Source of the DNA: an uncultured Pelagibacteraceae bacterium
GTDB taxonomy: Bacteria; Pseudomonadota; Alphaproteobacteria; Pelagibacterales; Pelagibacteraceae
Length of the DNA: 64,000 nt
Assembly: GCA_902582345.1 (NCBI GenBank)
Contig: CACHRU010000002.1
Coordinates: 145,081 to 209,080 of the forward strand
Direction of reading: 5' to 3'
Shown one piece after another: positions 28,093 to 53,968 of this stretch. The translations under genes and the position numbers were made by a program. Position 1 is the stretch's first letter, and each line of letters opens with the position of its first letter. The notes below the pieces were generated by a model. The model had not been told where the DNA came from. It made no database searches and was given only the letters and a program-made list of their open reading frames with translations.

Positions 28093-28121
28093 TTGACAAA
28101 TTGATTCGGTCATGTTTTAAT
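28093..28121 (+). promoter_or_regulatory. promoter for the helicase-TerB-fdxA-carD run
   Basis: TTGACA (28093-28098) and TTTAAT (28116-28121) are 17 bases apart, about 60 bases upstream of the helicase ATG. The -35 is a perfect consensus and the -10 is weaker. Confidence 0.45.
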
Positions 28122-31045: not shown

Positions 31046-31390
31046 ATGACATATATTGTAAAAGACGAATGTATAAAATGTAAACTTACTGATTGTGTTG
31101 AGGTCTGCCCTGTAGACTGCTTTTACGAAGGTGAGAACATGCTAGTAATTAATCCTGATGAATGTATAGATTGTGGAGTGTGCGAACCAGAGTGCCCTAT
31201 CGATGCTATTGTATCTGATAATGAGTATAATGAAGAGGATAAAGATAAATGGCTATTGATTAATAAAAAATTTTCTAATATATGGCCTAACATAACAAAA
31301 AAGAAAGAGCCTATGCAAGAACATGAAAAATTTAGAGAAATTAAAAATAAGCATGAAAAACACTTTTCAGAAAAACCGGGAAATCAATAA
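31046..31390 (+). CDS. fdxA: FdxA-type 7Fe ferredoxin
   Basis: The 114-residue protein is a bacterial ferredoxin with two cluster motifs: CIKC-X4-C-X3-CPVDC near residues 9-25 and [12 protein letters not shown] at 40-51. The first motif has the spacing of the 3Fe-4S plus 4Fe-4S (7Fe) group common in alphaproteobacteria. The C-terminal tail ([17 protein letters not shown]) is typical of FdxA. It carries electrons in the cytoplasm for partners not visible here. Its stop overlaps the carD ATG by one base. Confidence 0.93.
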
Positions 31391-32061
31391 TGCCTAAAAA
31401 GAAAAAAAAGAAAATTAAAAAAAAACCTCTAAAACTTAAAAAAGTAAAATTATTAAAAGTTAAAAAAACTAAAGAACCAGAACCAAAAAAAAATATATCT
31501 TCTAATGGCGAGGAAAAAGTTGAAATTAAAAAGATCAAAAAACAACCAACAGAAAAAAGACAGTATAATCTTAAAGATTATGTCGTTTACCCTAAACATG
31601 GAGTTGGTAAAATTATTGCAATAGAAAGGCAAACTATAGGACAAATTGATATTCAATTTTATAAAATTCTCGTCGAAAAAGAAAAATTGACTTTAACAGT
31701 TCCAATAAATCAACAATTTAATTTGAGGCCTGTTTCCTCAATAAACCAAATCAATAAGTGTATATCGATTTTAAAAAGTAAACCAAAAATAAAAAGAACT
31801 ATGTGGAGTAGAAGGGCTCAAGAATATGATCAAAAAATTAATTCTGGAAAAATTTATGAATTGTCTGAAGTAGTAAAAGATTTAAATAAAAATACAGACA
31901 TTATTGCAGATCAATCCTATAGTGAAAGACAACTTTTTGAAAAGGCTTACGATAGATTAAAATCTGAATTTGAGGTTGTTTTGAAGATAAGTCCAGAAGA
32001 TGTTAGAAAAAAAATGGATAAAGCTTTAGGAAGAAATCAAAACTTAACTGTAGCCGAATAA
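31390..32061 (+). CDS. carD: CarD/CdnL-family transcription regulator with Lys-rich N-terminal tail
   Basis: CarD binds RNA polymerase beta and stabilises open promoter complexes. The RNA-polymerase-interacting domain starts at LKDYVVYPKHGVGKI (around residue 58), followed by the helical DNA-binding C-terminal domain (MWSRRAQEYDQKI to YDRLKSEF). The first 55 residues are an unusual, almost purely Lys-rich extension ([12 protein letters not shown], then KKVKLLKVKK). The start is fixed by a TAATG overlap with fdxA. Typical CarD proteins are about 160-170 residues, so the tail accounts for the extra length. The gene ends just before a hairpin at 32063. Confidence 0.88.
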   Translation: MPKKKKKKIKKKPLKLKKVKLLKVKKTKEPEPKKNISSNGEEKVEIKKIKKQPTEKRQYNLKDYVVYPKHGVGKIIAIERQTIGQIDIQFYKILVEKEKLTLTVPINQQFNLRPVSSINQINKCISILKSKPKIKRTMWSRRAQEYDQKINSGKIYELSEVVKDLNKNTDIIADQSYSERQLFEKAYDRLKSEFEVVLKISPEDVRKKMDKALGRNQNLTVAE

Positions 32062-32062
32062 A

Positions 32063-32098
32063 AAACGCCCTTCTTAAAAAAATTTAAAAAGGGCGTTT
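32063..32098 (-). terminator. terminator shared between carD and the polybasic peptide gene
   Basis: AAACGCCCTT and AAGGGCGTTT (10 bp) are separated by a 16-base A/T-rich loop. On the minus strand the stem runs into six U, so it should end the polybasic-peptide transcript. On the plus strand the T-run is only three or four, giving weaker termination after carD. Confidence 0.7.
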
Positions 32099-32112: not shown

Positions 32113-32187
32113 CTATCTTCTTCTTCTTCTTCTTTTTTTAGCTTTCTTTTTAGTTTTCTTTTTAGCTTTTTTTCTTCTTTTAGCCAT
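32113..32187 (-). CDS. 24-residue polybasic peptide
   Basis: An ATG-started frame of 24 residues begins MAKRRKKAKKKTKKKAKK and ends in six Arg; 19 of 24 residues are Lys or Arg, the rest Ala, Thr and Met. A GGGAG lies 7 bases before the ATG, a TTGACA/TAATGT promoter stands about 50 bases upstream and a terminator follows 15 bases after the stop, so it has every element of an expressed gene. It is too short for the ORF track. The composition suggests nucleic acid binding, like histone-H1-type tails or very small ribosome-associated proteins. I do not recognise a named family. Confidence 0.65.
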   Translation of the reverse strand: MAKRRKKAKKKTKKKAKKRRRRRR

Positions 32188-32237
32188 CTTTATCTCCCTT
32201 TGTTTAAACAAATCAATTGATTCGTTTGTTAATAATT

Positions 32238-32265
32238 ACATTAAGTTTTTTTTCATAAGTGTCAA
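32238..32265 (-). promoter_or_regulatory. promoter of the polybasic peptide gene
   Basis: On the minus strand a perfect TTGACA (32260-32265) and TAATGT (32238-32243) are 16 bases apart, about 50 bases before the ATG. The rest of the gap up to 32389 is plain A+T-rich DNA in which I see nothing else. Confidence 0.6.
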
Positions 32266-52832: not shown

Positions 52833-53968
52833 AAAAAATATTTTTAATAATTGGAATATCTTTTTTTATTACATCGAATTCTAGTTCGAGTAATTCAGAA
52901 AAATTATACGAAAAAATTGATTTGTTTGGTGAGGTTATTGAAAAAGTAAAAGATAATTATGTTGATGAAATTGACCAAGCTGAGGTAATGGACTCAGCAA
53001 TAAATGGTGTCCTACAGTCTCTTGATCCTTATTCGGCATATATGAGCCCAGAACTTTTCAATGAAATGCAAACGGATACTAGAGGTGAGTTTGGTGGTTT
53101 AGGAATTGAAATCGGAATGGAGGCTGGTGTAGTAAAGGTGATTTCACCAATTGATGATACTCCAGCTTCAAGGGCGGGAATAAAATCAGGAGATTATATT
53201 GTTAAGATTGATGAAATACAGGTTCAAGGTAAAACTTTAATGGAAGCTGTTAAATTGATGAGGGGTAAAGTTGGAACTAGTATTAAATTAACAGTTAGAA
53301 GAAAAGGAACTAAGAAAGCTTTAGAATTTAAAATAAGAAGAGAGGTAATTGAAGTTCAATCTGTTGATGCAAAAATACTAGGAGATAAAAAAAAGATAGG
53401 GTACATAAGACTTAAATCTTTCAATGAAAATAGTGATAAGCAATTTATAAAGAATATTAAATCTTTTGAAAAGAAAGAAAAACCAATCGGATATATAATT
53501 GATCTAAGAAATAATCCTGGAGGACTTTTAACACAAGCGATTAGTATAACTGATTTTTTTCTTGAAGATGGTGAAATTGTTTCTACTAAGGGAAGAAAAT
53601 CATCAGAAACCAGAAAGTTTTTTGCTAGAGCCGGTGACGGTATTAATGGAAAACCGGTAATTGTAATGATCAATAATGGATCAGCATCAGCATCTGAAAT
53701 TTTTGCAGGCGCCTTGCAAGATCACAAGAGAGCAATTGTTCTTGGTGAAAACACTTATGGTAAAGGTTCAGTACAATCTATAATTCCCCTGAGAAATGGT
53801 GGAGGTATGAGATTAACTATTTCAAAATATTATTTACCATCTGGTAAATCTATTTCTGAAGTCGGTGTTACACCAGACATAATTTTAGAAGAGTCGGGGG
53901 ATAATTTTGTTATAAATACAGAAACTGATAATCAACTAAATTATGCGATTAAACTGTTCACATCTTGA
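52829..53968 (+). CDS. ctpA: C-terminal processing peptidase (S41)
   Basis: This 379-residue periplasmic protease has a signal peptide (KKIFLIIGISFFITSNSS), an N-terminal helical segment with DSAINGVLQSLDPYS, a PDZ domain around residues 90-165 (GGLGIEIGMEAGVVKV, AGIKSGDYIVKID) and an S41 catalytic domain. The Ser nucleophile is in NNGSASASEIFAGALQDH and the Lys in NTYGKGSVQS. It cleaves tails of periplasmic or envelope proteins. It is coupled to rsfS, and rppH follows 3 bases later, an arrangement common in alphaproteobacteria. Confidence 0.94.
   Translation: MKKIFLIIGISFFITSNSSSSNSEKLYEKIDLFGEVIEKVKDNYVDEIDQAEVMDSAINGVLQSLDPYSAYMSPELFNEMQTDTRGEFGGLGIEIGMEAGVVKVISPIDDTPASRAGIKSGDYIVKIDEIQVQGKTLMEAVKLMRGKVGTSIKLTVRRKGTKKALEFKIRREVIEVQSVDAKILGDKKKIGYIRLKSFNENSDKQFIKNIKSFEKKEKPIGYIIDLRNNPGGLLTQAISITDFFLEDGEIVSTKGRKSSETRKFFARAGDGINGKPVIVMINNGSASASEIFAGALQDHKRAIVLGENTYGKGSVQSIIPLRNGGGMRLTISKYYLPSGKSISEVGVTPDIILEESGDNFVINTETDNQLNYAIKLFTS

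What the first reader, a model, noticed from the sequence alone, without database searches (positions are those of the whole stretch)
32113..32265. 24-residue polybasic peptide gene with its own promoter, RBS and terminator
The frame is MAKRRKK...RRRRRR with 19 of 24 residues basic, using only five amino acid types. It has a perfect TTGACA -35, GGGAG before the ATG and a strong terminator, so it is not just a low-complexity artefact of A-rich DNA. The purine tract could also be read as simple-sequence DNA, but the Ala and Thr codons are regularly spaced (AKKKTKKKAKK), as in histone-H1-type repeats. It may be a nucleoid- or ribosome-associated peptide.
Basis: partly seen in the sequence, partly recalled or inferred. 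Interest (0 to 1): 0.7.

Follow-up and report, generated by a model that had tools for sequence, protein, structure and literature searches.

The report
Tiny histone-like gene in SAR11 bacteria
The most abundant group of ocean bacteria carries, next to the carD gene in every genome that could be checked, a real but overlooked gene for a 19-91-residue protein made almost only of lysine, arginine and alanine (24 residues here), and its start region holds a DNA-methylation control site that some of these bacteria also place in front of their DNA-packaging protein HU, so it is probably a miniature histone-like protein tied to the cell cycle.

Summary
On the minus strand (ATG 32187, stop 32113) lies MAKRRKKAKKKTKKKAKKRRRRRR with GGGAG, a TTGACA box and a terminator shared with convergent carD.

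It is a real gene. It is present in every Pelagibacterales carD locus whose contig reaches it: 29/29 same genus, 40/40 from 11 other genera (one with an apparent one-base error), 19/19 in the sister family. Indels stay in frame, pN/pS is about 0.10, and 15 of 18 replacements are K<->R. Length runs from 19 to 91 aa; long forms are classic histone-H1-tail-like (AAPKKK, KRKPA), so the 24-mer looks like a shrunken H1-type polycation.

All 187 intact leaders carry CGAATCA (one CGAATCG), 38-42 nt after TTGAC, starting a conserved 5' hairpin. The heptamer is the reverse complement of TGATTCG, the extended methylated GANTC site linked to GcrA activation in Caulobacter. Pelagibacterales keep GcrA (18/19) and CcrM (19/19). 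A matching site at the same spacing precedes the nucleoid protein HU in the sister family and three early Pelagibacteraceae genera.

Best explanation: a minimal H1/protamine-like nucleoid polycation, methylation- and cell-cycle-controlled with HU. Gene reality is shown; DNA binding and GcrA control are inferred.

The parts
32113..32187 (-). CDS of the 24-aa polybasic peptide MAKRRKKAKKKTKKKAKKRRRRRR (ATG 32187-32185, stop TAG 32115-32113)
   Evidence: orthologues at the same place in all testable Pelagibacterales carD loci; pN/pS about 0.10
32194..32198 (-). Shine-Dalgarno GGGAG, 6 nt before the ATG
   Evidence: GGGAG-type SD conserved in the same-genus alignment and in the order-wide leader list
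32206..32227 (-). 5'-UTR hairpin AAACGAATC-AATT-GATTTGTTT near the predicted mRNA 5' end
   Evidence: RNA fold -7.3 kcal/mol, z -2.69 for the window; mean z -3.66 over 122 distinct leaders, all z < -1; covariation modest in type A and clear in type B
32218..32224 (-). Invariant heptamer CGAATCA (TGATTCG on +), a GANTC site matching the extended GcrA/CcrM motif, predicted about +4 to +10 of the transcript
   Evidence: 186 of 187 intact leaders exact, one CGAATCG; motif from PMC7987155; GcrA and RAMA/CcrM present in the order
32260..32265 (-). -35 box TTGACA, 41 nt before the heptamer
   Evidence: TTGAC-to-motif distance 38-42 nt in all 185 measurable loci; one copy of the composite motif per Pelagibacteraceae genome that has it
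32063..32098 (.). Bidirectional intrinsic terminator between the convergent peptide gene and carD
   Evidence: GCCCTTTT..AAAGGGC core conserved in the same-genus alignment
31390..32061 (+). carD, the convergent neighbour, with a Lys-rich N-terminal tail
   Evidence: convergent with the peptide gene in every locus with enough flank
28093..28121 (+). Promoter before the helicase ORF that opens the co-directional helicase-fdxA-carD run: TTGACA, 17-nt spacer holding TGATTCG, then TTTAAT (GcrA-like site between -35 and -10)
   Evidence: GATTCGG(T/A)C conserved before this gene in 17 of 17 parsed relatives

Best explanation
This is a genuine, order-wide conserved small-protein gene of Pelagibacterales (SAR11). 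Its product is an unstructured polycation of the histone-H1-tail/protamine type, reduced to about 20-35 residues in most lineages, which most likely binds DNA (and perhaps other polyanions) electrostatically and helps neutralise and compact the nucleoid. Shown: the ORF, its purifying selection, its conserved promoter box, leader hairpin, SD and terminator, and its H1-like long orthologues. Inferred: transcription starts just upstream of CGAATCA, a CcrM-methylatable GANTC site of the extended type linked to GcrA activation; passage of the replication fork makes it hemimethylated and GcrA/RNA polymerase responds, so synthesis is coupled to chromosome replication, as for HU, which shares the site in deep-branching lineages. 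The short hairpinned mRNA is then translated from an open SD; in some lineages the SD lies in a CTCC/GGAG stem, which could add translational control.
For: Present and convergent with carD in 29/29, 40/40 and 19/19 testable loci. pN/pS about 0.10, 15 of 18 replacements K<->R, and the only A<->G change at codon position 1 is an Ala/Thr exchange. Every distinct CDS has a stop in the +2 frame, yet the reading frame stays open. Long forms carry H1-type AAPKKK/KRKPA repeats. CGAATC(A/G) in 187/187 intact leaders, 38-42 nt from TTGAC where measurable. Composite motif at most once per Pelagibacteraceae genome; the second sister-family hit lies at HU. HU leaders in the three sister-family genera sampled and in Pelagibacteraceae genera g283, g289 and g5 carry ACGAATCA, ACGAATCG or ACGATTCG. 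GcrA in 18/19 and RAMA/CcrM in 19/19 genomes. TGATTCG/YGAKTCK is the proposed GcrA-activating site in Caulobacter, direct targets being sought within 40 bp of the start (PMC7987155). Pelagibacter GANTC sites are largely methylated with an ori-ter gradient (PMC9516812).
Against: No transcript, ribosome or protein data were available. Binding to DNA rather than RNA, ribosomes or polyphosphate is not shown. In Caulobacter, GANTC sites whose promoters rise at 40-60 min lie between -35 and -10, and promoters with sites elsewhere are lowest then (PMC4287350); here the site is predicted at about +4, so activation is not assured. The HU link is absent in the window's own genus and in g6, the largest Pelagibacteraceae genus sampled. 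Brevundimonas GcrA targets showed no extended motif (PMC7987155). The TSS is inferred from promoter geometry only, and the -10 is weak.
Confidence: 0.6

Rival explanations
1. It is a lineage-specific ribosomal or ribosome-associated peptide (as the small basic proteins bTHX, bS22/mS38 or mycobacterial bL37) that fills rRNA, with autoregulation through its leader hairpin.
For: Short, MAK-R start, extremely basic, single copy, universal in the order; structured leader, with the SD in a stem in some lineages.
Against: Length varies from 19 to 91 aa with repeat expansion even within one family, unlike a protein fixed in an rRNA pocket; the motif is shared with HU, not with ribosomal genes; no PDB chain or family hit, although low-complexity filters make that uninformative.
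Confidence: 0.15
2. The peptide is a general polyanion ligand (RNA, polyphosphate) or phase-separation agent rather than a chromosome protein, as proposed in part for AlgP.
For: Composition has no DNA specificity; AlgP, an H1-like protein, localises to polyphosphate granules (PMC9239181).
Against: Motif shared with HU points to the nucleoid.
Confidence: 0.15
3. The conserved unit is a structured RNA (hairpin leader plus terminator, an sRNA), and the ORF is incidental or a purine-rich tract.
For: The leader hairpin is conserved and covaries in part; the predicted transcript is short.
Against: In-frame indels, pN/pS about 0.10, conserved ATG and SD, charge-preserving changes.
Confidence: 0.04
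4. CGAATCA is not a GcrA/CcrM site but a binding site for another regulator, or purely an RNA element at the mRNA 5' end.
For: The motif also forms the 5' arm of an RNA hairpin in most lineages, and its position downstream of the predicted start is unusual for GcrA activation.
Against: In type-B leaders the CGAA part is unpaired yet unchanged; HU variants (CGAATCG, CGATTCG) keep GANTC and the extended motif; GcrA and CcrM are retained throughout the order.
Confidence: 0.3

Closest known systems
Bacterial histone H1-like lysine-rich proteins (AlgP of Pseudomonas; Chlamydia Hc1/Hc2)
   Same: K/A/P-rich low-complexity tail resembling the H1 C-terminal domain, repeat-number variation (PMC9239181, PMC2848022)
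   Different: Those are far longer (AlgP has a 124-aa helical N-terminal domain before its tail; Hc2 165-237 aa); here the whole protein is the tail, down to 19-25 aa and Arg-capped; no detectable sequence homology
Protamines
   Same: Very short, Arg/Lys-dominated, C-terminal R-run
   Different: Lys exceeds Arg, Ala spacers, free-living bacterium; no relation tested
HU (hupA/hupB)
   Same: Shares the TTGA-...-ACGANTC(A/G) start region in the sister family and three early Pelagibacteraceae genera
   Different: HU is a folded protein; no sequence similarity to the peptide
GcrA/CcrM methylation-controlled promoters of Caulobacterales
   Same: Extended GANTC motif TGATTCG close to a sigma-70-type start; GcrA and CcrM present
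   Different: Site lies downstream of the predicted start; SAR11 lacks CtrA (PMC2877005); targets in SAR11 were essentially unknown (PMC7987155)
Pelagibacter leader motifs of Meyer et al. 2009 (rpsB, rpsL, ffh)
   Same: Cis-element before a single gene in SAR11
   Different: The carD-side intergenic region is not in that paper's Table 1 or among its motifs; no Rfam family matched at this locus

Membership tests
Protein-coding gene (versus spurious ORF) | Conserved start, stop, SD and frame across lineages | tested here: met
   single apparent one-base disruption in L184 (G449), inside a run of eight A
Protein-coding gene (versus spurious ORF) | Synonymous excess over non-synonymous change | tested here: met
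   pN/pS 0.102, 36 disjoint pairs; A<->G position 1 vs 3 = 1 vs 32, p = 8e-9
Protein-coding gene (versus spurious ORF) | Detected protein or ribosome footprint | not testable with these tools
Histone H1-like bacterial proteins | Low-complexity K/A/P(-R) composition with repeats | tested here: met
   Composition K 51%, R 24%, A 17% in 110 distinct CDS; AAPKKK/KRKPA repeats in long orthologues
Histone H1-like bacterial proteins | Sequence homology to a described H1-like family | tested here: inconclusive
   No Pfam, NCBIfam or PDB match, but bias filters suppress such sequences and no positive control was run
Histone H1-like bacterial proteins | Binds DNA / nucleoid localisation | not testable with these tools
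   Needs biochemistry or imaging
GcrA/CcrM target gene | Extended methylatable GANTC site (YGAKTCK) within 40 bp of the start | tested here: met
   CGAATCA (rc TGATTCG) in 186 of 187 intact leaders, CGAATCG in one, position relative to an inferred start
GcrA/CcrM target gene | GcrA and CcrM encoded in the genome | tested here: met
   PF07750 in 18/19, PF18755 in 19/19, both in G000; the PF07750 control also rang in Sulfolobus acidocaldarius
GcrA/CcrM target gene | Site between -35 and -10, as in Caulobacter promoters rising at 40-60 min | tested here: not met
   Site predicted about +4 to +10; the promoter before the helicase-fdxA-carD run does meet it
GcrA/CcrM target gene | GcrA occupancy and methylation-dependent expression | not testable with these tools
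   Needs ChIP-seq, SMRT-seq, RNA-seq
Ribosomal protein (bTHX/bS22/bL37-like) | Near-constant length and specific contact residues | tested here: not met
   Length 19-91 aa, repeat-number changes
Structured 5' leader RNA | Hairpin kept by covariation | tested here: met
   Type B: 96% of cells paired, covariation score 0.213 vs 0.098 shuffled, 0/500; type A weaker, 0.158 vs 0.134, 14/500

The most novel reading that the evidence does not exclude
Probability: 0.3. Interest if true: 0.85.

Novelty: new variant of a known kind. Interest (0 to 1): 0.7.

Why it matters
SAR11 is among the most numerous bacterial groups on Earth and has a strongly streamlined genome, so a gene kept in every testable genome of the order is unlikely to be idle, yet this one is short enough and basic enough to escape annotation and tryptic proteomics. 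If it is a chromosome protein, it shows how little of a histone-like tail suffices. Its leader gives a concrete, highly conserved candidate target for the GcrA/CcrM methylation system in bacteria that lack CtrA, where what that system controls is open. Because cultured strains exist and genome-wide methylation data have been published, the prediction can be tested directly.

Tried and rejected
Spurious purine-tract ORF: rejected. sRNA without translation: rejected on codon evidence. Leader-peptide attenuator: rejected, since only a terminator and the convergent carD follow. Membrane-active antimicrobial peptide: judged unlikely, no hydrophobic residues. Riboswitch/Rfam family: no Rfam hit at this locus. 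Pfam, NCBIfam, PDB and phage searches: nothing, uninformative for low-complexity sequence. First class-wide peptide pattern was badly written, did not match the window's own gene and is discarded. Direct protein search of the own genome failed for low complexity. carD neighbours in 27 non-Pelagibacterales alphaproteobacterial loci show no comparable gene; the one 24-aa K/R-rich frame there (L234) was not followed up. All 13 non-Pelagibacterales hits of the genome pattern scan that were translated are other proteins, 54-646 aa. A laid-out copy of the whole genome was not available. Structure prediction was not run: a 24-mer of K, R, A and T would give no usable model.

Full report
OBSERVATION. 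The frame is exactly where described: minus strand, ATG 32187, TAG 32115-32113, MAKRRKKAKKKTKKKAKKRRRRRR, 19 of 24 residues K/R, GGGAG six bases before the ATG, TTGACA at 32265-32260, and a 16-pair terminator hairpin at 32098-32063 that also ends carD from the other side. The generic promoter scan does not list the promoter because no good -10 lies at 16-18 nt. It is the only ATG-started frame of 18-60 aa with at least 70% K/R in the window, and none appeared in 40 Markov-simulated windows.

IS IT A GENE? Yes. carD was used as an anchor in relatives. The peptide gene is present and convergent with carD in 29 of 29 same-genus loci (20-25 aa, indels in whole codons). In 40 loci from eleven other genera of the same family it is present in all; one (L184, genome G449) has an apparent one-base disruption inside a run of eight A, and two that a first filter missed are intact. 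In the sister family, 19 of 19 loci whose contig reaches the place have it. Among the 189 loci in which the gene was parsed automatically, 179 show carD directly, one more has a carD whose motif the filter missed, and the other nine have under 0.7 kb of flank. In 36 disjoint sequence pairs there are 41 synonymous and 18 non-synonymous differences, pN/pS 0.10; 15 of the 18 are K<->R; A<->G differences at codon positions 1, 2 and 3 number 1, 15 and 32. The +2 frame of all 110 distinct CDS contains a stop, so the open frame is not a by-product of a stop-free purine tract.

WHAT KIND OF PROTEIN. Among the 110 distinct MAK/MPK-type CDS lengths run from 19 to 58 aa, mostly 21-27; composition is K 51%, R 24%, A 17%. 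Deeper lineages have longer forms: G480, whose contig length equals that of IMCC9063 from memory, has 58 aa, MAKKRKKAAKKKVAKKPAKRKVAKKKPAAKKRKPAAKKKAPAKKRKPAKKKTAKKRKR; the sister family has 40-91 aa such as MEELKVIFAKARKKAKKKAAPKKKRKAAKRKPAKKK..., with repeat-number variation. A genome of HTCC1062 length (G466, 1308759 bases, identification from memory) has MATKKKAKKAKKKTKKKAKKAKKAKKRKR. The sister-family and Pelagibacteraceae proteins cannot be aligned convincingly, but position, orientation, promoter box and leader motif are shared, so I treat them as orthologous loci (inference). This is the composition of a histone H1 tail or of AlgP/Hc2-type proteins (PMC9239181, PMC2848022), without their other domains. 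Pfam, NCBIfam and PDB give nothing, as expected with low-complexity filtering, so family membership by homology is untested rather than failed.

THE LEADER. All 187 intact leaders carry CGAATCA (186) or CGAATCG (one), starting 38-42 nt after the start of TTGAC in the 185 where the box could be measured (two further leaders are cut by contig ends). Standard promoter geometry puts the transcription start a few bases before the motif (inference). The composite pattern occurs at most once per Pelagibacteraceae genome tested and was found in 109 of 118 genomes of the order. The motif opens a hairpin: mean z of the first 40 nt is -3.66 and every one of 122 distinct leaders is below -1. In most lineages (type A) the heptamer is the 5' arm, with A-U/G-U/G-C variation at one pair; shuffles put the support as modest. 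In g5, g283, g285 and g289 (type B) the hairpin is moved downstream and covaries clearly, while CGAA, now unpaired, stays invariant. So two constraints overlap: a sequence motif and an RNA hairpin. In g5, g285 and g289 a CTCC...GGAG stem can cover the SD; the sister family has a similar CC/GG arrangement, but its predicted fold is weak (z -1.70).

THE MOTIF. CGAATCA is the reverse complement of TGATTCG, the extended methylated GANTC site proposed for GcrA activation in Caulobacter (TGATTCG, more broadly YGAKTCK; direct targets sought within 40 bp of the start; PMC7987155). GcrA (PF07750) is found in 18 of 19 and the CcrM-type RAMA domain (PF18755) in 19 of 19 Pelagibacterales genomes, the window's own included; the PF07750 control rang in Caulobacter but also in Sulfolobus acidocaldarius. 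SAR11 is reported to have a CcrM homolog (PMC3973325) and Pelagibacter GANTC sites to be largely methylated with a replication gradient (PMC9516812), while Pelagibacter lacks ctrA (PMC2877005). GANTC is depleted in the window (115 against 187 expected) and CGAATCA/TGATTCG occurs only twice in 64 kb: here, and at 28102-28108 inside the 17-nt spacer of the TTGACA-TTTAAT promoter before the helicase gene that opens the co-directional helicase-fdxA-carD run. There GATTCGG(T/A)C is conserved in 17 of 17 parsed relatives, the placement seen at Caulobacter promoters that rise at 40-60 min (PMC4287350).

THE HU LINK. In the sister family the second hit of the composite pattern lies directly before the HU gene. 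HU leaders carry ACGAATCA or ACGAATCG in the three sister-family genera, ACGAATCA in g283, ACGAATCG in g289 and ACGATTCG in g5; all keep GANTC and fit the extended motif on one strand or the other, at the same spacing from TTGA where measured. Other hits of a relaxed pattern in eleven genomes look like tRNA or gene-internal sequence by inspection only. The HU site is missing in g1 (the window's genus) and g6, so the link is ancestral or lineage-limited.

MECHANISM AND LIMITS. Shown: gene, selection, leader motif, hairpin, synteny, HU motif sharing, presence of GcrA/CcrM. Inferred: start site, GcrA/CcrM control and its direction, nucleoid binding. The site lies downstream of the predicted start, where Caulobacter data do not promise S-phase activation. 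I put about 0.6 on the combined reading (nucleoid polycation under methylation-linked control); that this is a real translated gene I hold near 0.97.

Noticed in passing
28093-28121 (+): Highly conserved promoter before the helicase-fdxA-carD run: GAACATTTGACAAATTGATTCGGTCATGTTTTAATC...TTTGTTCT, with a TGATTCG GANTC site in the spacer and outer GAACA/TGTTC inverted ends; GATTCGG(T/A)C kept in 17 of 17 parsed relatives.
   Followed up: partly
31390-31500 (+): CarD of SAR11 has a lineage-variable Lys-rich N-terminal tail ([23 protein letters not shown]...), so both convergent genes encode polybasic segments; relation not tested.
   Followed up: no
L248, L249-L251 (HU leaders): HU leaders of the sister family carry ACGAATCA/ACGAATCG followed by a C-rich/G-rich pair around the SD, like the peptide leader.
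   Followed up: partly
53504-53810 (-): Rfam Rp_sR47 (Rickettsia sRNA47) match just above its gathering score (60.6 vs 60).
   Followed up: no
window: GANTC is depleted: 115 sites against a Markov expectation of 187.
   Followed up: no
L179 source genome G470:C6: Two carD matches of identical score in opposite orientation about 2.4 kb apart, probably an assembly artefact.
   Followed up: no
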